A stretch of 24,815 nucleotides of DNA. Source: a virus. How positions within the stretch are numbered: position 1 is the first letter of the stretch; every line of letters starts with the position of its first letter. Positions 4,638-24,815 of this stretch are shown here, one piece after another. Both the position numbers and the translations under genes were made by a program. Under the pieces are notes generated by a model. It saw only the letters and a program-made list of their open reading frames with translations. It did not search any database and was not told the DNA's origin. The stretch spans positions 1-24,815 of IMG/VR virus record IMGVR_UViG_3300010297_000079; one strand, given 5' to 3'.

Positions 4638-5377
4638 TGACAAAAATTATTTTACATGGAGCGTTAGCCAAACAATTTGGTAAGGAGCACAACTTCCTAA
4701 TAAGGAAGCCGATTGATGCTATTCGGGCGCTAATGGCCAACAAGAAGGGGTTTAGACACGCATTTAAAACTTGGGGGAAAGAGGGAAAGCTATATGAATT
4801 AATTTGTGACGGCAAAAAAATAGATTCGGAGCAAGACTTGGCTAGTCACGGGGACTATCAAGAGATACACTTTGCGCCTCTTATAATTGGAACAAGTAAT
4901 GCCGGGAAAATAATTGTTGGGGCGCTATTAATAGTCGTTAGCGTATTATATCCAACACTGGGAACATTTGGACAGGCACTTATGGGCGCAGGAGTATCTC
5001 TTGTTTTAGGAGGAATTATGGGCTTGTTATTTCCCCCTCCGACCCCTACATTTAACGCGGAGGCATCTCCGAGGTCGTTTATTTTCTCAACCTTGGAAAA
5101 CGCCGCAACGCAAGGGGCTTCTGTTCCCTTGGGTTACGGAAGAATAAGGGTGGGAAGTAAAGTAGTATCTACTTCTATAGAGCCTCAGCGATTAGGCGGG
5201 GCAAACAAAAGAATGATGACAGGGCGTGAATCGGAGGCAAAGTGGGATGAATGGAAAAACTATCAACTGGAGGAATGGAGAGGAATTATGGCTATAGCTC
5301 CCATTGTAATCTGGAAAGACAGGGGAAATTTACCTTTGCCTCCAGAACTCCCAATCACAGTAGTGGAAACAGAATGA
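4637..5377 (+). CDS. I: Tail assembly protein I, second copy (paralogue)
   Basis: 246-aa second copy of the I-type protein. It keeps the beta-grasp-like start (KIILHGALAKQFG), the KPIDAIRALMANKKGFRH block, a longer hydrophobic Gly-rich segment (about 92-135), the SVPLGYGRIRVGSKVVS hallmark, and GGANKRMMTGRESEAKWDEW. It differs from copy one by an altered loop before the hydrophobic segment and an extended C-terminus (ITVVETE). Translation is coupled to copy one through TAATG and to J through an ATGA overlap. Lambda uses one I gene, so the two copies may be redundant, form a heteromer, or serve at different assembly steps; I cannot tell which. Confidence 0.9.
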   Translation: MTKIILHGALAKQFGKEHNFLIRKPIDAIRALMANKKGFRHAFKTWGKEGKLYELICDGKKIDSEQDLASHGDYQEIHFAPLIIGTSNAGKIIVGALLIVVSVLYPTLGTFGQALMGAGVSLVLGGIMGLLFPPPTPTFNAEASPRSFIFSTLENAATQGASVPLGYGRIRVGSKVVSTSIEPQRLGGANKRMMTGRESEAKWDEWKNYQLEEWRGIMAIAPIVIWKDRGNLPLPPELPITVVETE

Positions 5378-8300
5378 ATATAAAAACAACAACAAAGGAT
5401 TTTCTTAAAACAAGATTAGTGGGCGCTGGAAATGACGTAGTATTAAAGGCCCCCAATAACACTTCTCAACTTCTAATGTCTGTTGAGTCGTTCTCTGTTA
5501 TAGATTTATTGGCAGAGGGGCCTATAGGTGGCGTTGTCGACCAAAAAGGAGCGTATGTTGGCGGAGACCGCCTGTTATGCGGGGTGTATATTGACCAAGT
5601 TCCAGTTAGAGAAACTTTAAGTCAGGAATCTTATATTTATAATAGCTTTCCTACGGGCGTTAATTCTACTCAGCCCTTTTCTAGGGATTTAACTGGGATA
5701 GCCAATATTTTAGATTCTTATGATTCTGCATTCCAAAGTATTTACAGAGATGAAGATGAAGAGATGCTGGATTTGGACAAAGCTTTTGCGGCCGGAGCAT
5801 ATCAACTTAACAAGGGCTTGCAATCACTTTTGCAATATACTTCAGAAGAAGAGGCGATGTTGCTTCGGGGGCAAAGTGCGTTTTTTGTCTCAGAAGATAT
5901 AAAATATGCATTTATTCCTTCTTCCGCGGTGGATATATCAAACTTGAATATTACGGAAAACAATACTTCTATTCAAGTTATGTATAGTGGGGCAAACGGA
6001 GAGATTGGAATTTTAAACAACAGGTATAGAAAAAACAGCAACAATGAAGGCGCCTTCAACCAAATGGTTGTTTCTAAAATCCCTGACCCAATTATTAATT
6101 TCTCCTATAAGTTTAATGCCCAAAGCACCAATGTAAGCGTGTCTGATATTCGAGATGGATATATTCTAATTCCGATAGCCAGCGGAGACACCTTGGCAAG
6201 CGTGGGAGGGAAGGTAAAGTTTACTTCAGTAGACAGCGAGTGTCTGGATTTCACATCACAAGAACTAAGCGGGGCATCTATATTTCTACAGTCATTTCGA
6301 GAAGATGCGTCTAATACATATAATTACGACAAAATTGACGTTGAGGTAAGGAATGGGGAAGAAAACCAGCTCCCATTGGACAATGTGATAGAGACCAGTC
6401 GTTCATATGACACAAATTTTACGCTGGTTGGCGCAGTAACTCCAGAAAGTTATCACGATAAAATCGACCCCCTCAAAGGTGAAAACGTCAAGCCCTCTAC
6501 AGCGGATTCTGCTTATACTTCCCAATCAAGGCTTGTGGAAGGCGGAGAAGATTATGCCCAATGGGCAAAGGACTCATTCAATAACTATAGAGATGAAAAA
6601 GCGGCGTACTCACATATTATTGAGAACCCAGCCGTGACCAAGGTTAGCGCCACATTTACTTTGGGTTCATTATACGACACGCAGGTTACGGAGAAACCGG
6701 AGGACAAAGCTGGAACACAAACCGTCGCTACCGTAGAAATGGGTATCGAGATAGGGCTGGAAGGAGACAATGACCCGAGCGACCCCTTGTACGAAACATT
6801 GAAACAGTATCATAAAGACATAACCTTTGGGATAGAAGGTCTTGTTAGGGGGACTCCATTCAGATTTAGAGTCGGGGGCGGCAATAATTCCGCGCGGGGC
6901 TCATGGATTGCGGGGACAAGGGGAACAAAGTTTTCTGACTTAAACGACCTTCCCTTGCCCGCGGAAGTCCAAGGCAGAAAAAGATATATAAAGATATATA
7001 GAAAAACGCCAGAGACTTTTAGCTCTAAAAGGTCAATCTCTATTACCCTCTCCGCTATTAATGAATATTATGGAAAGAGTTTTTCATATCCGCTTTCTGC
7101 CCACGCCGGAGTTATGATAGATTCTAGGGGGTTCTCTAGGGTTCCGAGTCGAGCATATGATTTGCGGCTAAAAAAAGTTTTAATCCCATCAAATTATTAT
7201 CCCCTTTATAATAACGGGATAGACAAAAGATTTATCTCTAATAAAAACGACTGGGACAGTAATAACAAGCCTAAAATATATAATGGCGATTGGGACGGGA
7301 CATTTAGATATGACTGGACAGATAACCCGGCGTGGATTTTGTATGACATGCTTATTGACCCAGTGTATGCTATCGGGAATCAGTTTGATGACCTACGAGA
7401 TATAAATATTTGGCAATTATATGAAATTGGGAAATTCTGTGACGCAATAAATGACGATGGAGAATTTATTGGAGTAAACGATGGGTATGGAGGTTTGGAG
7501 CCTAGATTCTCCTGTAATGTTATGCTTAATAACGAACAGGAAGCTTACGATATTCTAAATAGCATTGCCACAGTATTCAGGGGAACGGTATTTTACGCGG
7601 GTTCTGATGTCGATTTTTATTATGACGTAGAAGATGAGCCTGTGGCGACATTTAATAATCATAACGTGGATAATGGCTCGTTTACATATTCTGATTCATT
7701 GAAATCATCAAGATATACTGTAGTTGAAGTTCCATACATGGATAGGAAGGACAACTTCCTTCAAAAAGTCGAGTATTATGAAGACGAAGAAAGTATTCAA
7801 AGATATGGATACATTAAACACGTTTTTCAGGGGATAGGGATAACCTCTAGGGGGCAAGCTCAACGCTTTGCCAAGTATGCTTTGCTTTCCAATAAATTAG
7901 AAACTGAAACCGTTCAATTCGCTGCTGGCAGAGAAGCTATGCTGCTCCAGCCCAGTGATATTATTCGCGTAGATGACGAACTGAAAAAATTACAAGCAGT
8001 AGGAAATTACATAGCAGAAATTGATTATGATAATAAGCAGATAATTTTGCCGCATATGCCAACCGGAGGTTTAGATACTGAAATATATCTATACTGTCTT
8101 ACTGGCGAAAATACCTTAGACCAGCTTTTCCAAGACGCATATGATGAGGAGCTTTCTATCTCTCAAGGGAAAATAGACAACTTAAATACGCGAAAAATTA
8201 AACAGTTCAGCGTATCTTCTTATTCCTATACTGGAACCGATGGTGGGGGAACAGGGCTTGTCGTGAACATAGACCCTAGTCAAAGCGGCATAGCCAAATT

Positions 8301-11300
8301 CAACGATGTTTTAGTTGGCTCTCTTTGTTCTATAAAAACCACCGGCCGTAATGACAGTCTTTACAAAGTTATTTCCATGTCAGAAGAAGGAGAGGGAAAG
8401 ATAAACATTCTGGCATCCCAGTATGAACCCCAAAAATTCGGTCTTGTGGAAAGCGGAATAAAATTTTCGCAGGAGGAAGATTATTTTGCTAATCTGTCTG
8501 TAGACTACAACGATAACACTCCAGACCCTCCGCAGTCAGTAACGGTAAGCGGTGGAGTTAATGTTGTTGACGGCAAGGGAGGAATTTATTTGACGGGAAC
8601 AATAATAGAAAATGCAACCTATCCCTTGACTGAAAAATACCACTGCTATCTTACAACTCCGAGGGGGACAAAACTGACTAAGTCGATTTATAATTCATCC
8701 GCCTCAGAGCAAGTTGTTTTTGGGCCAATGTACGAATTTGGAACATATAATTTATCGGTATATGGAGAGAGCGCAGAGCCGTTGAAGCTACGCTCAGTAG
8801 GCGCAACTTCTTCTACTACTAGTATATCATTAAGCTCATCCGCCTATGATTACTGTGTTATAAATAGCGTATCATTTCAAAAGGGAGCGGGGGAATATAG
8901 CGCTCCAGAGGGCGAAAGTGAAAAAAATTCCGAAGGCACTTTTGAGCTGTATCAAGGGGATTTGAATATCGTTTGGACGGTGCGCGATAGGATTGGAAGG
9001 GTCATTACCACTGCCGAGGGAATGAGAACCAACTGGGATTATCCCAAGGTAAGCCTAGATATAAAGTACGACGATGGGACTTACGCCGCCAAGGACTGGA
9101 TTTATCGCTCCGAAAGCGTCGGGGCGTTAATTAGGCAAGAGCAATTGAATACATGGTTTAATGGTTCAATCCCACGCTCATTTGATATTGTGCTAAGAAT
9201 GACATCGGATTCTCAGCCAGAAGAGTCTATCGCCACAATTAATATTTTAAATCCTGAGCCTAAATTAGATATAGTAAGGGTATCCAGTTCCTACGACAGT
9301 ATAGCCAATGGATTTAATATTTTCGCCGATGCTCCAAAAAGATATAGAGATGATATTGAAAGGCTGTATCTATACACCGGAAACTCACAAACGGGCGTAG
9401 GAGAATTGTTCACGGAAATAGACATTGGAAATAAGAGCGCCTTGGCAAAAAAGGACTCGTTGCTTTTATATGGAGACTTATATGATAATATTACAGACAA
9501 TACTTTGTTATCTGTAGAGTCCCTGTATGACTCTCTATTCTTTAACGGAGAACCCGTTGAAATGAATAGTTTTGCCTCTCCTTCAGATTTTCCGGATGGA
9601 ATGTCTGGCGATACTGCGTACCAAATAGTGCTTGGGAATACTTTTAATTCCTTGCTATATTTAGACGCAAACCGAGGGTATTATAATACAGGCTTGGCAA
9701 TCAACAATCAGTCGTATTTGACGAATGCTGGCCTTCGACAATTAAATGATGGCTATTATCCCTTTGAAAGGCTAACAGGCGTTACGAGCAATACAGCAGG
9801 AGGAACAGGCTTAATATCGGGCTCAGACGTAAGCTATAGGTATCCTATCGTCAACGAATCTGCTGAGGGAGTTTGGATTTATAACGCGGCTTATTCTTCT
9901 TACGCTAATTCTGGATGGGTAAATACATCAGAATTGCCCGGAGGTTATGTAACGGGCAATATCAATAACGATGTTGGGGGCAATAGAAGCTGGTCAGACA
10001 ACTGGGTTTATTTTGGAAGCTTAAGCTCTTGGGTTTTTGTCGCAGACACAGAATACAGCTTTGGAGCAAACGCTAGTGTAGGCAAGTTCGAAACAAGTAA
10101 GTATTTTGATATAAGAAATAGAAATGGATTTAGGCTTGCTGAAGAAGAGCCTGCTGGTGTCAGCAACGCAACATTTCAATCTGGCACCGAGTCTTTCTCT
10201 GCCGTGGCGTGGGCCGCCCCGATGAAGACCCTTAATAAAATGTATTTATTTGATTGCGGCGGCCAATCAGGGGGATGGTCATTTTATTTAAGTGGACAGG
10301 AAACCGCTGGAAACCCGAGCGGAAGTTATAGATTAGATGTTAGACTATCTGACCAGCCTGCCGTGGGAAGCACGGGGGGATTAATCACTGTAACTGGCGG
10401 ATTAAATGCTTGGGAAATAGGAAAATGGTCTCACTTTGGCATTAATTTTTATACCATAACGGGTGCTGGGGGGAATACTGGTTATGCCGACGTTTATCTT
10501 AATGGGAAACTTGATAACTCGGGCGTTGCCTCGGGGTCTGGAACGAACCCACACAACGGAGCCTGTGGCATTGGAACTCAAATGGGACAATCTGTTTCTG
10601 GAGCGGGAAATAACGGAGGGGTCTCAGACTGGACGGACAATTACTTTTTTGGCCACATAACAGATGTCGGAATATTTGCGGCAAGTATGCTAGGGCAGGA
10701 AATGCAGGAACAATACTATGGGATAAGAAACCAATACTCCTTTAAGTTGTCTACTGGGGGTAATCTCATTCAAGAAATAACTGGAGAAAACCCATCTAAT
10801 CTCATTTCTGTTAACTCTCTAGATAATTCTATTATACAAGTTAGCGTTCAAAACGCTGCTGGGGCAGGAGCTAGTGAAAAGTCATTAATTGAAAAAATTA
10901 ATACATTAGGAATGACTGGTATCTATAAGCAGTTTACGCTTCGTAGCGAAGTCGACAGTGATAACGAAAAATTCCAAAACTTAATCAATGGAACTTTCTA
11001 CCTAGATGAGGCGGACTATTTGGGCAATGTTTATGACTGGCACAAAATTGGCGAAGAAGATATTGGTATCCGTTATTTAACTACTGGACAACTGGGTTCC
11101 CCTACTCCGAAATGGGGGAAATGGATATTGTATAGTGGGGAAACCGGAACGATTCTTTATCAATATACTGGAATTGATGCAGATAATGCTGGAGGTATCC
11201 ACGAGTCGGGAGGGGCTTCTGCTAGTGGAAAGGTTCCGATTGCGGTCAGGATGAAAACTGGGGCAAGTGGCAATACTCTGGGGTTCCCCGTGTCTCCGCT

Positions 11301-11994
11301 ACCGCAAATAATGAACACAAATATCTCTGACAACACAAGCGTACGGTTTGCCGACTTTTATCTTCGGGTTAAGGCGGAAGATTATTTGGGGCAAAGCGAA
11401 TCCTTTTATCCGCGAGTAGGTCTTCCTGCCGTGCAAGTTAATTTCGCAGAACTTAGTGATGTGGGAGCGAAGACAAAAGCCCAAGCTGGCTTAGCGGCTG
11501 GGGAACAGTTGCAGAACCTTATAGAAACTTTGAGAAGGGCCGGAGAAACGGGCGTGGACTACTATGGATTTCAAGCGGCTTTGTCAAACGGGGGATTTAA
11601 AGCCTTGGTTAGTGAAAGTCCGATTATAAAGGATACCGCGCCAGACGCCTATAAAACTTCCAAGCCGAACATAGAAACGTCGTTTCCTATTGTGTTGGAT
11701 GATATCGAATTCCGCTCTGATGGTTATACATTTGATTTAACAGTAACGGCATATCATGAAAGTTCAGATGCGGATATTTTCTTTTCTACTCTGAAATCCG
11801 ATGTTATCGCCGCAAGCCCAAGCCCATCGCTAAAGGGTACTCCTAGCGTTACTGATGCAAGATTTAAAACAAAAACCTTAACCGTTATGGACAGAAGCTC
11901 CATTTGGGTCACGGCAAAAACCCCCGGCAAGGCGATTTCTGAGTATGACTCAGAAAGGGTCTCTATTGAATTCCACAATGCTGTAGACCTATAG
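5374..11994 (+). CDS. J: Host-specificity / central tail fibre protein J, giant with LamG-like domain
   Basis: 2206-aa homologue of lambda gpJ, which forms the tip baseplate hub and receptor-binding fibre. Residues 30-60 carry the family start (SVIDLLAEGPIGGVV, then a VYIDQVPV-type strand). The conserved hub follows through about residue 870, with DPVYAIGNQ near 660 and a tail-tip core including RFAKYALLSN and LLQPSDIIRVDD (830-870). An FN3-like module starts near 1048 (PDPPQSVTV). A LamG/concanavalin-like domain spans about 1573-1788 (YFDIRN, W-SHFGINF, VYLNGKL). The C-terminal 350 residues are unassigned and probably contact the receptor or form the fibre tip. I start at ATG 5374, an ATGA overlap with I'; an earlier in-frame ATG at 5251 lies inside I' and adds no J-like sequence. 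Lambda J is about 1130 aa, so this one is nearly double. Confidence 0.93.
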   Translation: MNIKTTTKDFLKTRLVGAGNDVVLKAPNNTSQLLMSVESFSVIDLLAEGPIGGVVDQKGAYVGGDRLLCGVYIDQVPVRETLSQESYIYNSFPTGVNSTQPFSRDLTGIANILDSYDSAFQSIYRDEDEEMLDLDKAFAAGAYQLNKGLQSLLQYTSEEEAMLLRGQSAFFVSEDIKYAFIPSSAVDISNLNITENNTSIQVMYSGANGEIGILNNRYRKNSNNEGAFNQMVVSKIPDPIINFSYKFNAQSTNVSVSDIRDGYILIPIASGDTLASVGGKVKFTSVDSECLDFTSQELSGASIFLQSFREDASNTYNYDKIDVEVRNGEENQLPLDNVIETSRSYDTNFTLVGAVTPESYHDKIDPLKGENVKPSTADSAYTSQSRLVEGGEDYAQWAKDSFNNYRDEKAAYSHIIENPAVTKVSATFTLGSLYDTQVTEKPEDKAGTQTVATVEMGIEIGLEGDNDPSDPLYETLKQYHKDITFGIEGLVRGTPFRFRVGGGNNSARGSWIAGTRGTKFSDLNDLPLPAEVQGRKRYIKIYRKTPETFSSKRSISITLSAINEYYGKSFSYPLSAHAGVMIDSRGFSRVPSRAYDLRLKKVLIPSNYYPLYNNGIDKRFISNKNDWDSNNKPKIYNGDWDGTFRYDWTDNPAWILYDMLIDPVYAIGNQFDDLRDINIWQLYEIGKFCDAINDDGEFIGVNDGYGGLEPRFSCNVMLNNEQEAYDILNSIATVFRGTVFYAGSDVDFYYDVEDEPVATFNNHNVDNGSFTYSDSLKSSRYTVVEVPYMDRKDNFLQKVEYYEDEESIQRYGYIKHVFQGIGITSRGQAQRFAKYALLSNKLETETVQFAAGREAMLLQPSDIIRVDDELKKLQAVGNYIAEIDYDNKQIILPHMPTGGLDTEIYLYCLTGENTLDQLFQDAYDEELSISQGKIDNLNTRKIKQFSVSSYSYTGTDGGGTGLVVNIDPSQSGIAKFNDVLVGSLCSIKTTGRNDSLYKVISMSEEGEGKINILASQYEPQKFGLVESGIKFSQEEDYFANLSVDYNDNTPDPPQSVTVSGGVNVVDGKGGIYLTGTIIENATYPLTEKYHCYLTTPRGTKLTKSIYNSSASEQVVFGPMYEFGTYNLSVYGESAEPLKLRSVGATSSTTSISLSSSAYDYCVINSVSFQKGAGEYSAPEGESEKNSEGTFELYQGDLNIVWTVRDRIGRVITTAEGMRTNWDYPKVSLDIKYDDGTYAAKDWIYRSESVGALIRQEQLNTWFNGSIPRSFDIVLRMTSDSQPEESIATINILNPEPKLDIVRVSSSYDSIANGFNIFADAPKRYRDDIERLYLYTGNSQTGVGELFTEIDIGNKSALAKKDSLLLYGDLYDNITDNTLLSVESLYDSLFFNGEPVEMNSFASPSDFPDGMSGDTAYQIVLGNTFNSLLYLDANRGYYNTGLAINNQSYLTNAGLRQLNDGYYPFERLTGVTSNTAGGTGLISGSDVSYRYPIVNESAEGVWIYNAAYSSYANSGWVNTSELPGGYVTGNINNDVGGNRSWSDNWVYFGSLSSWVFVADTEYSFGANASVGKFETSKYFDIRNRNGFRLAEEEPAGVSNATFQSGTESFSAVAWAAPMKTLNKMYLFDCGGQSGGWSFYLSGQETAGNPSGSYRLDVRLSDQPAVGSTGGLITVTGGLNAWEIGKWSHFGINFYTITGAGGNTGYADVYLNGKLDNSGVASGSGTNPHNGACGIGTQMGQSVSGAGNNGGVSDWTDNYFFGHITDVGIFAASMLGQEMQEQYYGIRNQYSFKLSTGGNLIQEITGENPSNLISVNSLDNSIIQVSVQNAAGAGASEKSLIEKINTLGMTGIYKQFTLRSEVDSDNEKFQNLINGTFYLDEADYLGNVYDWHKIGEEDIGIRYLTTGQLGSPTPKWGKWILYSGETGTILYQYTGIDADNAGGIHESGGASASGKVPIAVRMKTGASGNTLGFPVSPLPQIMNTNISDNTSVRFADFYLRVKAEDYLGQSESFYPRVGLPAVQVNFAELSDVGAKTKAQAGLAAGEQLQNLIETLRRAGETGVDYYGFQAALSNGGFKALVSESPIIKDTAPDAYKTSKPNIETSFPIVLDDIEFRSDGYTFDLTVTAYHESSDADIFFSTLKSDVIAASPSPSLKGTPSVTDARFKTKTLTVMDRSSIWVTAKTPGKAISEYDSERVSIEFHNAVDL

Positions 11995-17663: not shown

Positions 17664-17879
17664 TTAAGCCGTTGTTACGGTGCGTCCACGAGAATGAATA
17701 GAGCGAATGTTATTCTTAGTGACTAAGCGTTCATTGTTTCTATTCCTGTCGAAAAAGCGAATCCCCTTGGGGGTCTCGCGAATAAGTCTAGCGTTAAAAG
17801 CTCGACCATCTTTTGTATAAAGGCCGAAAAATCGACCCTGAGTTGCGCGAATTGCGGGAAGAATATCTTTATTCATCAT
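17664..17879 (-). CDS. Small basic conserved protein, possible SH3-like fold
   Basis: 71-aa Arg/Lys-rich protein beginning MMNKDILPAIRATQGRFFGLYTKDG, with alternating short strands (RAFNARLIRETPKGIRFFDRN, ERLVTKNNIRSIHSRG) that fit a small SH3- or Sm-like barrel. The net positive charge suggests nucleic-acid or ribosome contact, but no function is known to me. I have seen small phage proteins of this shape with the GRFxGLYTKDG pattern. The start overlaps the 3' end of the Clp gene by 11 bases. A dedicated TTGACA box lies 27 bases upstream, and the gene is followed at once by a strong terminator. It therefore looks like a separately controlled, perhaps highly expressed unit. The second ATG (17876) is an equally possible start. 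Confidence 0.8.
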   Translation of the reverse strand: MMNKDILPAIRATQGRFFGLYTKDGRAFNARLIRETPKGIRFFDRNRNNERLVTKNNIRSIHSRGRTVTTA

Positions 17880-20178
17880 GTGTTAAGATGTTGATTATAA
17901 TGGATTTGTCAAGCATTTTTGCATGAAATTCTTCATTTTTATTAGTTTCATCTAATTTTTCATAAACTGCGCCAATGATATGTTCTTCAACCTTGGACAA
18001 TATAGGCCGAGCGCCGTCTTTGGGGTCACAGGAATCAGCCAAAAATCGAATCACTTCCTCGTCTGCCCGTATGGATAGCCCACATTGCGACAATCTGGTT
18101 CTGGCCAACGATTTTAGATGCCGATTGTCTAATTCATTAAACACCCAAGACCTGTCTACAGCGTCTATAATGTCCCTAGGAACGCGTTTGGTGTCCACGG
18201 ATACCATAGAACCCTCTCCGCCAAATCCAAGGCTGTCAGAACGGCTTATATGGCGAGTAGTAAAAAAGACTTTGGCCCTTGAGCAGTCGATTTTCTGGCC
18301 AATATTGTCCTGAAGAAAACCGTCATTAAGCATATTAACTAAAAGGTCTAAAACGACAGGGTGAGCCTTATCAATGTTTTCAAACAACAAAATTATTGTG
18401 GGATTGTTTTTTAACTTTTCGGTCAATATTCCTCCTTTGTCATACCCAACATAACCCGCAGAAGAACCGATTAGTTTATTAATTGACGTAGACTCGACAT
18501 AATGAGACATGTCGAAACAGGCCAACCCATCTTGTTTTAAGGGGCAGTATTCCGCGTACTGTGAGACAAATAGTGTTTTGCCTACCCCTGCGCCGCCAGC
18601 AAATAACGAACTAAACACTGGCTTGTTTTTGCGGCGTTGTGCGGCCATACCTCTCTCAAAAGAGCTAAACTCTTTAATAATATTGTCTTGCCCGCAAATT
18701 TTACTTTTTAAAAATTCTTCAAAAGTTTGTTTATTCTTTTCAAGTTTAAACTTTTGGGATATAAAATGACGAACGTCTTCTGCGGATGCGAGAACATTTT
18801 TAGAAATTTGCTCTGTCCATCTTTCCATTTCGATTTTATACAACTCTGCTTTTTTATCGTATTTTCCCAGCTTTTCGTCTTTTGGGACAGAAGAAACATA
18901 TTCTTTAAGTTCGTTTTCCAGTTGATTAATATGCGTTGGCCTTTTGCAGTGCCTAAGCTTTAAAAAAGTGCCAGCCTCATCAAGAAGGTCAAACGCCTTG
19001 TCTGGAAAGCGTCGATAGGGAACATTTACGTCTGCCGCGTGAACCAGCTCGGCAATTGCGCCATTATCAAATTCAATCCCATGATATTTTTCATAAGAAT
19101 CTTTACAATGAGATACGATGTCAATTGTTTCATCTACATCTGGCTCTTTGACATGGATTACCTCAAATCTCCTAGACAGCGCAGAATCTTTTTCAATATG
19201 CTTTTTATATTCAGCATAAGTTGTTGCACCTATGCAGGACAAATCTCCTCTTGCTAGGGCTGGCTTTAGAATATTGGCCGCATCCATGGCTCCATTATCT
19301 CCAGCGCCAACCACCATATGTATTTCGTCAATAAAGACAACGGTTTTCGCTGGAAAGGACTTAAGTTCTTCGACAGTTTGATTCAGTCTTTTTTCGAAAT
19401 CCCCTCGATACATGGCTCCAGCTACCATATCTGAAAGCTTTAATTCAAAAATTTCCATCTTGGGAAATGCAATCTCGGTATCTTCTGGAGGATTTTCCAT
19501 AGAAAGGGCAAGACCCTCAACAAGGGCGGTTTTCCCGACCCCAGCCTCTCCAACGAATAGAACATTGGATTTTTGTCTGCGACACAGCGCCGTCATGGCC
19601 GCATTAATCTCGTCCATTCTTCCAAAAAACTGGAAATTCCCATCTAAAATTCTGCTATTAATATGGTCGCAATATTGTTCTAAATATGACGTTTTTTCAA
19701 GGTTTTGTGCAGGGCCACGATGTGGGACATTCTCCTTGTTCTCGTGAAGTAAAGAGAGAAACTCTTGAAAGGTATCATAAAATTCTACTGCATCAATATT
19801 AACTTCCTGCAAAAAGCTTTTTACTTGTTGAGAGTTTTTGATGCACGAAGAAAAAATATGGTCTACGCCAATATAGGGGGTGCTGGAAATCTCTGCTTCT
19901 TTTTTGCTAAAGTCAATAACCTTAGACGATTCTTTCTTCCACGATATTTTTTTTCGGGGGGAGCGCTTGATGTCTGTACAATAACCTAGGCTAGACTGAA
20001 TCAAGCCTGCTGGGTCACTCGTACAGTTTGTTAAAAACATATGTATTACCTCGTATCCAGAAAGTAAAGATGATAAAAATATATCCATAGGGTGAACAGC
20101 GGTTCCCCCTAATTCTTTACAAATCTGTTTTGCTCTATCTATGCATTCTTTTGCTCTGGGATTATAATCTAAGTCCAT
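17869..20178 (-). CDS. Clp/Hsp100 (ClpA/ClpC-type) AAA+ ATPase with degenerate second ATPase site
   Basis: 769-aa double-ring unfoldase subunit. It has a Clp N-domain (about 1-145, double helical repeat) and a D1 AAA+ module with Walker A GEAGVGKT (about 209-216), Walker B VVFIDEIH, and sensor/arginine region IGATTYAEYKKHIEKDSALSRRF. A short middle region precedes D2 with Walker A GGAGVGKT (about 527-534). In D2 the Walker B reads LLFENIDKAHP: the usual Asp-Glu is Glu600-Asn601, so the catalytic Glu is gone. The stretch corresponding to FRPEFLNRID reads VPRDIIDAVDR, so the arginine finger appears lost. The sensor-2 GARP is kept, and a SLGFGG loop resembles the ClpP-docking loop. D1 probably drives activity while D2 only binds nucleotide. 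No ClpP is encoded in the window; a host ClpP or a chaperone role is possible. Start is coupled to the polymerase stop through TAATG. Confidence 0.92.
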   Translation of the reverse strand: MDLDYNPRAKECIDRAKQICKELGGTAVHPMDIFLSSLLSGYEVIHMFLTNCTSDPAGLIQSSLGYCTDIKRSPRKKISWKKESSKVIDFSKKEAEISSTPYIGVDHIFSSCIKNSQQVKSFLQEVNIDAVEFYDTFQEFLSLLHENKENVPHRGPAQNLEKTSYLEQYCDHINSRILDGNFQFFGRMDEINAAMTALCRRQKSNVLFVGEAGVGKTALVEGLALSMENPPEDTEIAFPKMEIFELKLSDMVAGAMYRGDFEKRLNQTVEELKSFPAKTVVFIDEIHMVVGAGDNGAMDAANILKPALARGDLSCIGATTYAEYKKHIEKDSALSRRFEVIHVKEPDVDETIDIVSHCKDSYEKYHGIEFDNGAIAELVHAADVNVPYRRFPDKAFDLLDEAGTFLKLRHCKRPTHINQLENELKEYVSSVPKDEKLGKYDKKAELYKIEMERWTEQISKNVLASAEDVRHFISQKFKLEKNKQTFEEFLKSKICGQDNIIKEFSSFERGMAAQRRKNKPVFSSLFAGGAGVGKTLFVSQYAEYCPLKQDGLACFDMSHYVESTSINKLIGSSAGYVGYDKGGILTEKLKNNPTIILLFENIDKAHPVVLDLLVNMLNDGFLQDNIGQKIDCSRAKVFFTTRHISRSDSLGFGGEGSMVSVDTKRVPRDIIDAVDRSWVFNELDNRHLKSLARTRLSQCGLSIRADEEVIRFLADSCDPKDGARPILSKVEEHIIGAVYEKLDETNKNEEFHAKMLDKSIIINILTHDE
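17907..17912 (-). promoter_or_regulatory. CTTGACA box upstream of the 71-aa gene
   Basis: A perfect TTGACA on the minus strand, preceded by C, lies 27 bases before the ATG at 17879. It sits inside the end of the Clp coding region, where it encodes Leu-Asp-Lys. A TATAAT at 17899..17894 lies only 7 bases after it, too close for a normal sigma70 pair, but could serve as an independent -10. Confidence 0.4.
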
Positions 20179-22736
20179 TAGTTAAGTTCTGATAATTTCA
20201 TATAGATTTTCTCATCTATAAGTTTTAGGGAATTAATAAAAAACGCGTCGCCGCTATACCTTCCGACAACCGTCAAAATACTATCCTTCTTGGGTTTTTC
20301 TCCTCCATTGTTTAAATAAGAGGTCAGGGTCTCCCTGTTTCTTCCGTCGGCCATAATGCCAACTAGGGAGCCTGTTTCGTCAGAGAGAAAAACTCTCATA
20401 TAGCGATTACCTGCCCTGCTTATCCCTATGGTTACATCATCCACAACGCCAACGATATGTCTTGTGTCTCGAAGGTCTCGTTGGACAAGGTCTCGAATAT
20501 TAATAAAATTCTTGTCAACAAACACATCGTTAAGTCTGTGGCTGTAAGAATAGCCTAAAATTTTACGCTCAAAATACCAATTAGCAAATTTTTCATGCCT
20601 TTTATTCAGGTCGTAAATTTCCTTATAGCGCCCGTACTTCCTTTTGAAGGTAGAAAATGTTTTTTCTGTAAAAATCGGACGATTATCATCTCCAGTAATA
20701 CCTTCTTTAACGCATTTGACAATTGAGTTAAGCACATCATATTCGTGCTTCTCTCCTAGTCTGGTGATATTTCTTTTTACTCTATCCGTAAGTAGATTAA
20801 ACGAGCAGGCGTGAAGAACCGTTTTGCTGCGGCAATTTGTCATGCTATCTAAGGCTCCCGCCTGTATAAGAGAGCTTACGATGCCGATATTAAGGCCGCA
20901 ATCCTTCGCTGTTATATAAACGTCATATATGTTATCGAATTTTTGACCGCGGAACTCTACAAGGTTAATTAGGCTCTTCTCCGAGACCCCTTTAATTGCA
21001 TTAAGTCCATACCTAATATTGTTACCCTCAACTGAAAAGTCTATGTCCGACTTACTCAAGTCGGGAGGCAGTAACTTAATATTGAATTGGCTTAGTTCCT
21101 TCTCTATCAAATTAACCTCTCGCAAGGGCTCTGGCTCAAACATAGCCATCTCCAAAAGGCTTAAAAAGAATTCCTGCGGATATTTGAATTTTAAATACAC
21201 AGTAATCGCAGATAAAATCGCATATGATACCGAGTGAGATAAATTAAAGGAATAATTGGCGCTGTCCTCGGCCACTCTCCATAAAATTTCGCCAACCTCT
21301 TCTGGGAGGTTTCTCTCTCGGATTTTTTCTTTGATTTTAGCCTCCCATGCGGACATTTCTTTTACTTTTTTCTTGCCCACAATGCGGCGTAATTGTTCCG
21401 ACTCGTCTAGGGTGAAGCCAATCTTATTGGCCATCTTCATCAACTGCTCTTGATAGAGTGGAATTCCCCCTGTATAATTTAAGACATCCGCAAAAAAATC
21501 ATGAACAACCTCAGGCCTTCCAGTTCTAACGTTTTCCGAATATTTATCCACAAAAGCCAATGCTCCCGGCCTAGCCAAAGCAATAACATCCGAAAGTTGT
21601 TGAATATTTTTAGGCGAAACTTTTTGACAAACACGAAAATTTGTATCAGCCTCAATCTGAAAAAGCCCCTTAGGGTTCTCAAGTTGGTTTAAGGCGGTAT
21701 AAATAAATGAATCATCTGGGTCGATATCATACATGGAAACCCCCAGTCTTTCGCAGGCCTTGTTCGCCACAGACAGGGTTCTGAGCCCCAGAATGTCAAA
21801 CTTAACCATCAACTCGGAAACTCCGTTCATATCATAACCAGAAACCAAGTGCCCGTCACCTGACGCTTGTAGTGGCATAATATCAGCAACAGGATAAAAG
21901 CTGATAGCAATACCAGAAGGATGTACTCCAGTGTTTTTATTGAGCCCCTCTAGCTTTTTAGCAATCTCAATAATCTTAGGGTTCTCTTCTGAGAATTTCT
22001 TGAATTCTTGAGATTCCTCTAGGGAGTCTGATATAGACACCACTTTCCCAAATTTTTTAGGAATCATGCCGCTTACCTGATTAGCCTTTTCCTCAGACAA
22101 CTCTCCAGCGAGTTTGCAACATTCTTTAAGGCATAGCTTACTACTTAAAGTGTTAAGGGTTAGGATTTTACAAGTGTACCCAGCAAATTTTTGCTCGATG
22201 TAATCAATAACTTCTTGGCGGCGGTCATAAGCAATATCGTTATCAACATCACAAAGGAGAGACCCATCAAGAAATGTATCGCCATTATGCTCAATTTTCC
22301 TAGCACGGCTTTTAGATACGAAACGCTCAAAAAACAAGTCATGTTTTATGGGGTCAACGCGAGTGACAGAAAGAAGGAATAAGACCAAGCTGCCAGCAGC
22401 GGAACCACGCCCAAAACCCGTAGGTATTTTTCTTTCGTGGCAATAATTAAGTATGTCCCAATTAAGCAAAATGTAGTCAGTAAAACCCAAATCATCCAAA
22501 ATAGAAAGTTCATAATCTAGCCTTTTGGTATATTCTTCATAAGTGTTTCCGAGCCGAGATTCCCTGTTGTTATAGTAGTCGTCTAAAGACTGTTTACACT
22601 TTGTCTGCAAAAACTGGAAGTTTGAGGCTTGTCTATTTAGCCCTAGTTCCTTGTAAAATTTATCTTCAATTTTTATGTTTGGAAGCTTTACCCCAGCAGG
22701 AAAAGGTTGTTTATATTTTTGAAATTTTTCCATCAT
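20178..22736 (-). CDS. dnaE: DNA polymerase III alpha (DnaE-type) without PHP domain
   Basis: 852-aa replicative C-family polymerase. It begins at the linker that normally follows the PHP domain (KQPFPAGVKLP), then palm and fingers: GFGRGSAAGS (107-116), the catalytic pair D163 and D165 in CDVDND, third Asp D314 in KFDILGLRTL, NTGVHPSGIAIS (268-279), and ALARPGAL. These correspond to the three catalytic aspartates of E. coli DnaE (401, 403, 555), so it should be active. A helix-hairpin-helix stretch (YGLNAIKGVSEKSL) and a C-terminal OB fold (about 755-850) follow. PHP and polymerase proteins together give about 1108 aa, the size of one normal DnaE. The start overlaps the exonuclease stop by 4 bases; tandem ATGs leave the exact start open by one codon. 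It copies the phage genome, probably with a host or phage clamp. Confidence 0.95.
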   Translation of the reverse strand: MMEKFQKYKQPFPAGVKLPNIKIEDKFYKELGLNRQASNFQFLQTKCKQSLDDYYNNRESRLGNTYEEYTKRLDYELSILDDLGFTDYILLNWDILNYCHERKIPTGFGRGSAAGSLVLFLLSVTRVDPIKHDLFFERFVSKSRARKIEHNGDTFLDGSLLCDVDNDIAYDRRQEVIDYIEQKFAGYTCKILTLNTLSSKLCLKECCKLAGELSEEKANQVSGMIPKKFGKVVSISDSLEESQEFKKFSEENPKIIEIAKKLEGLNKNTGVHPSGIAISFYPVADIMPLQASGDGHLVSGYDMNGVSELMVKFDILGLRTLSVANKACERLGVSMYDIDPDDSFIYTALNQLENPKGLFQIEADTNFRVCQKVSPKNIQQLSDVIALARPGALAFVDKYSENVRTGRPEVVHDFFADVLNYTGGIPLYQEQLMKMANKIGFTLDESEQLRRIVGKKKVKEMSAWEAKIKEKIRERNLPEEVGEILWRVAEDSANYSFNLSHSVSYAILSAITVYLKFKYPQEFFLSLLEMAMFEPEPLREVNLIEKELSQFNIKLLPPDLSKSDIDFSVEGNNIRYGLNAIKGVSEKSLINLVEFRGQKFDNIYDVYITAKDCGLNIGIVSSLIQAGALDSMTNCRSKTVLHACSFNLLTDRVKRNITRLGEKHEYDVLNSIVKCVKEGITGDDNRPIFTEKTFSTFKRKYGRYKEIYDLNKRHEKFANWYFERKILGYSYSHRLNDVFVDKNFINIRDLVQRDLRDTRHIVGVVDDVTIGISRAGNRYMRVFLSDETGSLVGIMADGRNRETLTSYLNNGGEKPKKDSILTVVGRYSGDAFFINSLKLIDEKIYMKLSELN

Positions 22737-23374
22737 ATGTCAAGGTCTCCGAGTTCTTTCCATAAGAGTTCGTGATTTTTGAGAATATCATATTCGGCGT
22801 CATGGAGTTTCGATGCATCATAAGGGATGTCATAATGCCTGAGCATTGCGGCCATATTAGTTCTGACTCCCCTTTTTCTGCTGTGGGCTAATTGATATTG
22901 CCAAGCCAGTAGATTACCATCGGCTAAAGTATGCGGACTTTGAAGGCCGTTCTTAATGGCAACAGCCAGCGCATTAGTATCCAATAGTCGAGAAAGATAC
23001 GACCAATCGGATTTAAGACCACAAAGACGGCGCAATGTGTTAATGATATAAATATCAAATTGAAGGAGGTTATGGCCCACTATTATAGTATCTTCTCTCC
23101 CCATTTCCGTCCACAGAAGATTAAAGACATGATACGGGTCTTCCCTCCTTTCGATATACTTTTTCTTGTTAAACCCCGTGACCCTTGCCGCCTCTGGGCT
23201 CACCTTCAAATCGTCCCAAGCAACAAAATGGTCGTGAATGGACTCTACCTTTTTTCCAGTAGAAATAAGCCAAGAAATTTGCCAAGGACGAGAAGAAATG
23301 AGATTCAGTCCTTCTGTTTCTGTGTCGAAAACGAGATATCTCTGGTCAAAATTAAATCTTAACAAATTTTCCAT
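22733..23374 (-). CDS. DEDDh 3'-5' exonuclease (DnaQ-like proofreading subunit)
   Basis: 213-aa exonuclease with the full DEDDh set, numbering from ATG 23374: D17 and E19 in VFDTETEGL (Exo I), D107 in GHNLLQFDI (Exo II), and H191-x4-D196 in LHDAEYDI (Exo III). This is the epsilon/DnaQ proofreading fold. An in-frame ATG at 23461 would add 29 residues that lie inside the PHP reading frame and precede the normal N-terminus of the fold, so I prefer 23374. The gene lies between the PHP and polymerase genes, overlapping the first by 23 bases and the second by 4. In PolC enzymes an exonuclease is embedded in the PHP domain; here the three parts are separate but in PHP-exo-pol order. It probably works with the polymerase as a proofreading complex. 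Confidence 0.9.
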   Translation of the reverse strand: MENLLRFNFDQRYLVFDTETEGLNLISSRPWQISWLISTGKKVESIHDHFVAWDDLKVSPEAARVTGFNKKKYIERREDPYHVFNLLWTEMGREDTIIVGHNLLQFDIYIINTLRRLCGLKSDWSYLSRLLDTNALAVAIKNGLQSPHTLADGNLLAWQYQLAHSRKRGVRTNMAAMLRHYDIPYDASKLHDAEYDILKNHELLWKELGDLDI

Positions 23375-24122
23375 GTTCTTGTTCCATATAAGATTGAAAG
23401 CAAAACTCGTTGCTTCCGAAATGTTGGAGGTTCGGGGCAGAAAGGTCGCAAGATTTTCCAAAAGAGCGGTTGCAGGTCATGCGATAAACCTGATATGCTT
23501 CGACATCTTCCCTGAGTTTATACAAAATAGTTTTGGTTTCTATCTTCTGACTGGGAAGAATCTCGTCGCGGGTATGAATCATGTTCTGAAATAAATTGTC
23601 AAAGGGCAGGCCATTCTCCTCAATGGAGAACAGTTCTCGTTCCTTTGGGAATGCACTATCAAAAATACAATTTTTGAAAAAATGAATATTATTCGCAAGA
23701 TAAGAATCGTAAAATGGATGTACTAACAAGAGGTTCTCTGTTTCGCATTTCCCCAATATGGACAAGTCCAAAAATCCCTCTCTTTCGGGGATGGAGAAAG
23801 CCTCAGAAAAAATATGGTACAACTCCTTGCAACCCTTATCGTTTAGGGCAAACAAAATTATTTTGTATGAACTTGTCTCCTTATCTTCGGTTACATCATT
23901 GCACATGTTCAGCCTAACCCCAAAACGCAGGGCTATTCCCTCTTTTGAGAAAGTTTTGTGCGATTCAAGGAAGCCTATCATGGAATCTTCAACGAGGTAA
24001 ACCTCTTCAAGGTTCGCTTCTTTGGCCATAGACAGAATATCTGCTGGCCCGCCATCATGGGTAGGCTTTATCTTTAAGATACTGCGGCCTAAGCTATAAT
24101 CTGAGACAAAAAATGGTATCAT
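23352..24122 (-). CDS. Stand-alone degenerate PHP-type domain of DNA polymerase III alpha
   Basis: 256-aa protein matching the N-terminal PHP domain of DnaE. It opens with FFVSDYSLGRSIL where DnaE has the HxHSxYSLLDG start. An EDSMIGFLESHKTFSKEGI region follows in place of the TDHGxxxGxxxFYxxAKKxGI motif, then GVRLN in the place of GxE. Near the end, DEILPSQ then REDVEAYQVYRMTCN corresponds to the NDVHYL...EAxEVL region. The metal-binding histidines of active PHP domains (first HxH, DHG) are absent, so phosphoesterase activity is unlikely and the role is structural, as in many DnaE proteins. It ends where the linker to the palm domain would begin. A Shine-Dalgarno-like AGGGA precedes the start, and a TTGACA box lies 31 bases upstream. 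Confidence 0.8.
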   Translation of the reverse strand: MIPFFVSDYSLGRSILKIKPTHDGGPADILSMAKEANLEEVYLVEDSMIGFLESHKTFSKEGIALRFGVRLNMCNDVTEDKETSSYKIILFALNDKGCKELYHIFSEAFSIPEREGFLDLSILGKCETENLLLVHPFYDSYLANNIHFFKNCIFDSAFPKERELFSIEENGLPFDNLFQNMIHTRDEILPSQKIETKTILYKLREDVEAYQVYRMTCNRSFGKSCDLSAPNLQHFGSNEFCFQSYMEQEHGKFVKI

Positions 24123-24153: not shown

Positions 24154-24159
24154 TGTCAA
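24154..24159 (-). promoter_or_regulatory. CTTGACA box upstream of the PHP gene
   Basis: A perfect TTGACA on the minus strand, preceded by C, lies 31 bases before the ATG at 24122, at the extreme 3' end of the 188-aa gene and the 33-base gap. A TATAAC follows after only 10 bases and TACTTT after 16. It is a candidate promoter for the replicase genes. Confidence 0.45.
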
Positions 24160-24722
24160 GAGTTTTTATGCCTAGGGCACCCAGAATATTCCATTTGTAC
24201 CCATATTTCGCCATCTTTCACGCAGGAGGGGTTGAAATCTTTTTCTAAATAGTTTTTGACAACATCTCCTTCTCCGTTTATTACTGAAAAATATTTAAAA
24301 TCAAATTTAAATGGACAGTGCCACATAACAGAGCCGTCTTTTTTGAGCTGTCCCTTCTTCTTTGCAAAGCCGCATAATAATTTTCCACCAAAAGTGTTGT
24401 CGCTGGGGAAATTTTTGTCAGACGCAAAATTACTACAGGCCGATGATTCATCAAAGTTTTCCACCATTTGCTGATAATGGCTTAACTCATACTCAAAAGC
24501 AGTCAACGCCTCATCTGGGATAGGCTTCATTTTTATTACCCCCTTGTCTTCGCCGTCCTCTTTAAACTTGAGTTTCATGTGTCGTAAAAATGGAAATTCA
24601 TTTTGCCTGAGGGAATACTCTCCAAATTTTTCCCTAATAGCCAGAGAATATATCCAGTCCTGCAAGTTGTCATCTATCTCGCTTCCAACGAAGGTTTTTG
24701 CGCTGGTTTTGAAATCCCTCAT
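24156..24722 (-). CDS. Conserved hypothetical protein with spaced cysteines
   Basis: 188-aa protein I cannot assign. It is mixed alpha/beta and carries several Cys in short turns: SACSNF, KLLCGF, WHCPFKFDF, PSCVK and GCPRH near the C-terminus. The LLCGFAKKKGQLKKDGSVMWHCPFK block looks like the best-conserved core. Four of the cysteines could bind zinc or an iron-sulphur cluster, but the spacing does not match a family I can name. There is no signal peptide or membrane segment. It is the most upstream gene of the minus-strand block seen here and precedes the polymerase parts by 33 bases, so a DNA metabolism role is possible but unproven. Confidence 0.8.
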   Translation of the reverse strand: MRDFKTSAKTFVGSEIDDNLQDWIYSLAIREKFGEYSLRQNEFPFLRHMKLKFKEDGEDKGVIKMKPIPDEALTAFEYELSHYQQMVENFDESSACSNFASDKNFPSDNTFGGKLLCGFAKKKGQLKKDGSVMWHCPFKFDFKYFSVINGEGDVVKNYLEKDFNPSCVKDGEIWVQMEYSGCPRHKNS

Positions 24723-24735
24723 TTTGGCAATTTTT

Positions 24736-24752
24736 TTTCTCTTATAGAGAAA
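24736..24752. promoter_or_regulatory. Perfect 7-bp inverted repeat upstream of the 188-aa gene
   Basis: TTTCTCT, a 3-base spacer and AGAGAAA form a perfect inverted repeat 14 bases before the ATG at 24722. Minus-strand TATAAT strings lie further upstream (82..77 and 77..72 of 247xx-248xx), without a good -35. The repeat could be an operator or a weak RNA hairpin near the ribosome site. The 93-base stretch from 24723 to the window end holds no gene. Confidence 0.4.
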
Positions 24753-24815
24753 TAGTTTATCTATAAAGCCAATTATATTATATCGAACGGGGTAATCGTT
24801 TTTTTCTAAAACGAA

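What the first reader, a model, noticed from the sequence alone, without database searches (positions are those of the whole stretch)
20178..24122. Replicative polymerase III alpha split into PHP and palm-to-OB genes, with the exonuclease gene between them
Seen: the gene at 23352-24122 covers only the PHP-type region of DnaE, and the gene at 20178-22736 starts at the PFPAG linker that normally joins PHP to the palm. A complete DEDDh exonuclease lies exactly between, and all three overlap. Known: bacterial DnaE is one chain with PHP at its N-terminus; PolC carries an exonuclease inside its PHP domain. Inference: a DnaE has broken at the linker and the proofreading subunit was placed at the break, a possible three-part, PolC-like arrangement. 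It is unlike intein-split cyanobacterial DnaE, which breaks much later in the chain and has intein halves.
Basis: partly seen in the sequence, partly recalled or inferred. Interest (0 to 1): 0.75.

Follow-up and report, generated by a model that had tools for sequence, protein, structure and literature searches.

The report
Phage replicase split into three genes
A large group of uncultured, mostly aquatic phages encodes its bacterial-type (DnaE) replication polymerase as separate genes, with the normally built-in PHP domain cut off and a proofreading exonuclease gene at the cut, so the question of what that domain does could be tested by adding or leaving out one protein.

Summary
On the minus strand of this IMG/VR phage contig lie three overlapping genes: a PHP-only gene (23352-24122), a DEDDh exonuclease (22733-23374, starting at ATG 23374) and a DnaE palm-to-OB gene (20178-22736). 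In relatives from 48 to 59% identical in the polymerase, all 174 loci (127 distinct) with enough upstream sequence carry all three genes; the order is the same in all 163 loci checked. Unrelated genes sit between them in a minority, so they are independent genes. PHP plus polymerase profiles are collinear with one-chain DnaE: a clean fission with no domain lost. All nine PHP metal positions examined are altered in 134 distinct PHP proteins, mostly to fixed Lys/Arg/Glu/Asp, yet the gene is under strong purifying selection. Exonuclease and polymerase active sites are intact. Best reading: a three-chain DnaE replicase core in which an inactive PHP subunit acts as scaffold; assembly is inferred. 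'PolC-like' holds only loosely. A PHP/polymerase split, without the exonuclease, also exists in cultured Rhodococcus phages (Grayson, Trina). I found no description of either split in the library I could search. New variant of a known kind.

The parts
23352..24122 (-). PHP gene (256 aa): whole DnaE-type PHP domain, metal ligands replaced
   Evidence: Pfam PHP 28.6 bits; PHROG405 N-term; AF2 model and Foldseek to DnaE PHP; hhalign to one-chain DnaE PHP, probability 96, E=3.5e-9; ligand table
22733..23374 (-). DEDDh 3'-5' exonuclease gene (213 aa), predicted proofreading subunit
   Evidence: RNase_T, phrog_192 DNA polymerase exonuclease subunit 1.5e-17, D17 E19 D107 H191 D196 invariant in 37 sequences, PDB 2p1j PolC exonuclease
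20178..22736 (-). DnaE-type polymerase gene without PHP (852 aa): palm, thumb, fingers, HhH, OB
   Evidence: Pfam DNA_pol3_alpha, DNA_pol3_finger, HHH_6; PHROG405 from position 324; palm D163, D165, D314 invariant; AF2 model matches DnaE structures
23352..23374 (-). 23-nt overlap of PHP gene end and exonuclease gene start
   Evidence: sequence; overlaps of 1 to 43 nt in most relatives
22733..22736 (-). ATGA: exonuclease stop and polymerase start overlap, likely translational coupling
   Evidence: sequence; the same -4 overlap in 72 of 113 distinct loci
24156..24815 (-). Upstream neighbour, conserved in position; nuclease-like (possibly RecB/Cas4-like), runs off the contig end
   Evidence: phrog_69 exonuclease, weak E=0.0065; present upstream of PHP in nearly all relatives with enough flank
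17869..20178 (-). Downstream neighbour: Clp/Hsp100-type AAA+ ATPase (769 aa)
   Evidence: AAA_2, AAA_lid_9, phrog_4871 ATP-dependent protease; follows the polymerase gene in nearly all relatives with enough flank

Best explanation
A phage DnaE was broken once, at the linker between PHP and palm, in the ancestor of a large clade of uncultured phages, with a DEDDh exonuclease gene at the break. The three genes are co-translated from overlapping frames and the products most likely reassemble into one replicase core: POL copies DNA, EXO proofreads, and the inactive PHP subunit docks on the palm side of POL as a structural scaffold that stabilises the polymerase and holds EXO near it. Shown here: the three genes, their domain content, conservation, intact polymerase and exonuclease active sites, loss of PHP metal sites, purifying selection on all three. 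Inferred: the physical complex, the scaffold role and proofreading by EXO.
For: Three genes always found together: 174/174 loci, 127 distinct, fixed order in 163/163, also in the deepest subclade at 48-51% identity. PHP and POL profiles are collinear with one-chain DnaE to within 0 to 5 residues in 16 of 18 cases. Mostly overlapping reading frames, EXO/POL ATGA in 72 of 113 distinct loci. dN/dS medians 0.08 PHP, 0.04 EXO, 0.03 POL. Catalytic residues invariant in EXO and POL. PHP ligands lost in 134 distinct sequences but replaced by the same K, K, E, D, R, K, so the site is kept as structure. In E. coli Pol III the inactive PHP domain supports stability and activity, and inactivity goes with a separate exonuclease (PMC3666897). 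A DnaB-type helicase gene in 23 of 23 long contigs fits a replication module.
Against: No complex was modelled or measured. EXO lacks the C-terminal tail by which E. coli epsilon binds PHP (only 17 residues follow its last catalytic residue), so the way it docks is unknown. In a minority of relatives genes are inserted between the three, so tight coupling is not essential. No beta clamp (PF00712) was found in 23 long contigs, so processivity is unexplained (the records may be fragments).
Confidence: 0.7

Rival explanations
1. Sequencing or assembly error: a continuous dnaE frame was broken artificially.
For: A single metagenomic contig can contain frame errors; a few individual relatives do show stops or gaps inside PHP.
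Against: 127 distinct loci keep three genes; unrelated whole genes (cupin-like, methyltransferase-like, IMP dehydrogenase/GMP reductase-like, homing-endonuclease-like) lie between them in several lineages; a 200-aa exonuclease cannot be a frame error.
Confidence: 0.01
2. The PHP protein no longer belongs to the polymerase and does a separate job (for instance regulation or capture of a host factor), while POL works without a PHP domain.
For: PHP diverges faster than POL (37-48% against 56-59% identity to the window protein) and has lost its catalytic site.
Against: It is kept as a whole DnaE PHP fold, always beside EXO and POL, under purifying selection. A PHP domain is described as strictly conserved in bacterial replicases (PMC3666897).
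Confidence: 0.15
3. The ancestor was one chain with the exonuclease domain inserted between PHP and palm, and this was later cut twice. This is a rival for the origin; the working of today's genes would be the same.
For: Other C-family enzymes carry fused exonucleases: PolC inside PHP (from knowledge), Flavobacteriaceae DnaE at the N-terminus.
Against: No fused PHP-EXO or EXO-POL frame in any locus. EXO keeps its own start with a conserved N-terminus (LLRF), as a stand-alone protein would.
Confidence: 0.15
4. PHP and POL are rejoined after translation by protein splicing or by trans-splicing of RNA.
For: Split inteins do occur inside POL in two relatives (L097, L260).
Against: PHP proteins (225-265 aa) and POL leave no room for intein halves; no Rfam match, group I or II introns included, in the window.
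Confidence: 0.02

Closest known systems
DnaE (DNA polymerase III alpha, C-family), one chain, as in E. coli or Patescibacteria
   Same: Same domains in the same linear order; collinear; palm aspartates conserved
   Different: PHP is a separate gene and an exonuclease gene lies between; no C-terminal domain beyond the OB fold
Rhodococcus phages Grayson, Peregrin, Weasels2 and Trina: two-gene DnaE
   Same: PHP domain encoded by its own gene (303 aa), polymerase in the next, overlapping frame
   Different: PHP ligands intact, no exonuclease between, break some tens of residues later in the chain, distant in the polymerase tree: an independent event
Cellulophaga phage phiST and Rossellomorea phage phiT1: two-gene DnaE
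   Same: DnaE in two genes
   Different: The break lies inside or after the palm, PHP stays fused to polymerase sequence; no exonuclease between
PolC
   Same: PHP, DEDDh exonuclease and polymerase all encoded together; EXO scores well with PolC exonuclease domains
   Different: PolC is one chain with the exonuclease inside PHP; the polymerase here is DnaE-type
E. coli Pol III alpha-epsilon core
   Same: Inactive PHP plus separate DEDDh exonuclease
   Different: PHP is part of alpha in E. coli; [quoted passage not shown]
Flavobacteriaceae chromosomal DnaE (Exo-PHP-Pol in one chain)
   Same: Exonuclease joined to the PHP side of DnaE
   Different: One chain, exonuclease at the N-terminus, before PHP
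Pbunavirus (phage SN) and Escherichia phage Bas98: exonuclease gene then one-chain DnaE
   Same: Exonuclease gene directly beside dnaE, overlapping by 4 nt or 1 nt
   Different: DnaE is in one chain; the exonuclease is upstream of PHP
Cyanobacterial split-intein DnaE
   Same: DnaE in two genes
   Different: Here no intein halves at the break, and the break is at PHP/palm, not far down the polymerase

Membership tests
DnaE (C-family polymerase) | palm, fingers, HhH and OB domains with catalytic aspartates | tested here: met
   Pfam; D163, D165, D314 invariant; AF2 model and Foldseek
DnaE (C-family polymerase) | PHP domain present | tested here: met
   in trans, as its own gene
DnaE (C-family polymerase) | PHP and polymerase in one polypeptide | tested here: not met
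   separate genes in 174 of 174 loci
Metal-dependent PHP nuclease | HHDHEH(C/H)DH-type ligand set | tested here: not met
   nine positions examined, none canonical in 134 distinct PHP proteins; motif from PMC12926913
DnaQ-type proofreading exonuclease | DEDDh active site | tested here: met
   D17, E19, D107, H191, D196 invariant
Bona fide Pol III epsilon | C-terminal tail that binds PHP | tested here: not met
   17 residues after the last catalytic Asp; definition from PMC3666897
PolC | PolC-type polymerase with the exonuclease inside PHP | tested here: not met
   DnaE models E about 1e-134, PolC about 1e-5; EXO is a separate gene after PHP
Split-intein DnaE | intein halves at the break | tested here: not met
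   no room at the PHP/POL break; compare true split inteins in L097 and L260
Three-subunit replicase core | physical PHP-EXO-POL complex | not testable with these tools
   no multimer prediction or biochemistry available

The most novel reading that the evidence does not exclude
A replicase core in which a stand-alone, catalytically dead PHP protein is an obligate adaptor, with the lost metal ions replaced by a fixed set of lysine and arginine side chains, and with PHP and EXO forming a proofreading module that can bind and leave the polymerase. That would make proofreading separable in a C-family replicase.
Probability: 0.25. Interest if true: 0.75.

Novelty: new variant of a known kind. Interest (0 to 1): 0.57.

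Why it matters
The bacterial replicase family is described as having its domains, PHP first, within one polypeptide, and a PHP domain is strictly conserved even where it is catalytically dead; its role is not fully understood (PMC3666897). Here nature supplies that dead domain as a separate protein, so its role in polymerase stability, activity and proofreading could be tested by leaving it out or adding it back. The arrangement is widespread in virus contigs but no close cultured relative was found, so it is probably hidden in annotation as hypothetical proteins. A second, independent PHP split in cultured Rhodococcus phages shows that the linker is a recurrent breaking point.

Tried and rejected
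Assembly error, polyprotein by frameshifting, intein rejoining and intron trans-splicing were considered and rejected. tBLASTn of PHP against cultured phages gave nothing, EXO only distant Microbacterium phages, POL only relatives at about 34% identity or less; deeper members gave little more. A search for an intermediate or one-chain sister found none; the stem of the clade is long (1.86 changes per column, support 100/100) and the placement of several outgroups is unsure. A one-chain DnaE on a Saprospiraceae MAG contig (L295) looked like an intermediate but groups with DnaE2 and lies beside an ImuB-like gene. Literature searches for a described split of PHP in phages found none, but the key paper on viral replicases (PMC3201878) is not in the library. 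Coevolution analysis was not run: too few independent sequences.

Full report
What is there. The window is a 24.8-kb IMG/VR virus record with siphophage-type tail genes on the plus strand and a replication cluster on the minus strand. Reading along the minus strand: a nuclease-like gene cut by the contig end (24156-24815), PHP (23352-24122, 256 aa), EXO (22733-23374, 213 aa), POL (20178-22736, 852 aa), and a Clp/Hsp100-type AAA+ ATPase (17869-20178). The last three junctions overlap by 23, 4 and 1 nt. The exonuclease start should be ATG 23374, not the longest ORF start at 23461: relatives are about 210 aa and share the N-terminal LLRF motif.

Domains. PHP is a full DnaE-type PHP domain: Pfam PHP over the cut-off, DnaE N-terminal profile match, AlphaFold2 model with pLDDT 86.6 and pTM 0.85, best PDB matches all DnaE or PolC chains, including E. 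coli alpha-epsilon chimeras, over the full length, and profile-profile match to the PHP part of one-chain Patescibacteria DnaE (probability 96, E=3.5e-9). POL has palm, fingers and HhH domains and its model (pLDDT 84.3) matches DnaE structures, with an OB fold at the end. EXO is DEDDh.

Is it real? 364 virus stretches match POL in a first scan. With later scans, 174 loci, 127 distinct by their POL 5' end, have more than 4.5 kb upstream of POL and every one has both PHP and EXO; in the 163 loci where all three could be ordered, the order is always PHP, EXO, POL. This holds for the deepest branches found (48-51% identity). In 113 distinct complete loci the EXO/POL junction is ATGA in 72; in a minority an unrelated gene sits between PHP and EXO or between EXO and POL. 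So these are independent genes. No frame fuses PHP to EXO or EXO to POL.

Clean fission. The family profiles for PHP and POL were laid on one-chain DnaE. The distance between the two hits equals the profile residues left over, with a difference of 0 or -5 residues in 16 of 18 cases. The two genes together equal a one-chain DnaE from PHP to OB, and EXO sits at the cut.

Function of each part. EXO keeps D17, E19, D107, H191, D196 and POL keeps its palm aspartates in all 37 aligned sequences. PHP has lost all nine metal positions examined in 134 distinct proteins; most replacements are themselves conserved: Lys (124 of 134), Lys (116), Glu (134), Asp (133), Arg (125), Lys (129), Ser/Thr (134). 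One-chain phage DnaEs with a degenerate PHP show other replacements. I infer that basic side chains took over the structural role of the metal ions. Median dN/dS is 0.08 (PHP), 0.04 (EXO), 0.03 (POL), from 13-17 pairs with high dS, so rough: PHP is needed. In E. coli Pol III, mutation of the inactive PHP site lowers stability and activity, and loss of PHP metal sites goes with a separate exonuclease (PMC3666897). The best reading is a three-chain replicase core with PHP as scaffold. The complex itself is not shown.

Relation to known systems. POL is DnaE-type, not PolC. EXO scores best with a phage exonuclease family and, among solved structures, with a PolC exonuclease domain, and lacks the epsilon tail. 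In the polymerase tree the family is one clade (100/100) on a long stem, apart from all one-chain DnaE sampled. Cultured phages examined mostly have one-chain DnaE. Exceptions: phiST and phiT1, cut inside the polymerase, and the Rhodococcus phages Grayson, Peregrin, Weasels2 and Trina, where PHP alone is a separate gene with no exonuclease between; in Grayson its ligands are intact. The 2026 paper on these phages does not remark on it in the passages found (PMC13313380). So PHP fission happened at least twice. In Flavobacteriaceae chromosomes the exonuclease is fused before PHP. Bacterial surveys describe inteins and frameshifts but no PHP split in the passages found (PMC3919608; PMC12926913).

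Limits. No multimer model, no biochemistry, no cultured member, host unknown: family contigs turn up in MAGs labelled Flavobacteriaceae, Saprospiraceae, Verrucomicrobiales and others, which is weak evidence from binning. That the phages are mostly aquatic is an impression from the MAG titles and contig set, not a tested count. Contigs may be incomplete. Whether the break or the exonuclease gene came first is open.

Noticed in passing
L097:5995-8982: A family member whose POL gene is itself cut at FNK^SHS, with about 98 aa of intein-N-like sequence at the end of the first half and about 40 aa of intein-C-like sequence at the start of the second: a split intein within a few residues of the motif where (from memory) the cyanobacterial DnaE split intein sits.
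   Followed up: partly
L260:5962-9042: Another family member with a split intein in POL at GRG^SAAGS (Pfam Intein_splicing and Hint matches below their cut-offs).
   Followed up: partly
L309:2965-6697 (Grayson), L311:3501-7279 (Trina): Rhodococcus phages with PHP and polymerase of DnaE in two genes; Grayson also has an intein-like insertion at FNK^SHS in the polymerase.
   Followed up: partly
window:23352-24122: Former PHP metal ligands are replaced by a conserved set of Lys, Lys, Glu, Asp, Arg, Lys in 134 distinct family proteins, as if side-chain charges replaced the metal ions.
   Followed up: partly
23 long contigs of the family (78-203 kb): No beta-clamp N-domain (PF00712) in any, DnaB-type helicase in all; how this replicase is made processive is unknown.
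   Followed up: partly
window:17869-20178: A Clp/Hsp100-type AAA+ ATPase gene directly follows POL with a 1-nt overlap, and in nearly all relatives with enough flank; a link to replication is unexplained.
   Followed up: no
L205, L208, L209, L210 between EXO and POL; L022, L046, L078, L143 between PHP and EXO: LAGLIDADG-like homing-endonuclease-type ORFs, and IMP dehydrogenase/GMP reductase-like genes, inserted at the junctions of the split polymerase (judged from sequence by eye).
   Followed up: no
window:3924-5377: Two adjacent genes both match the same tail assembly family (phrog_32), a likely tandem duplication; the next ORF (5251-11994, central tail fibre J-like, 2247 aa) overlaps the second by 127 nt.
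   Followed up: no
window:13274-16113: Two glycosyltransferase-like genes (GT group 1 and GT family 9) between the replication and tail modules.
   Followed up: no
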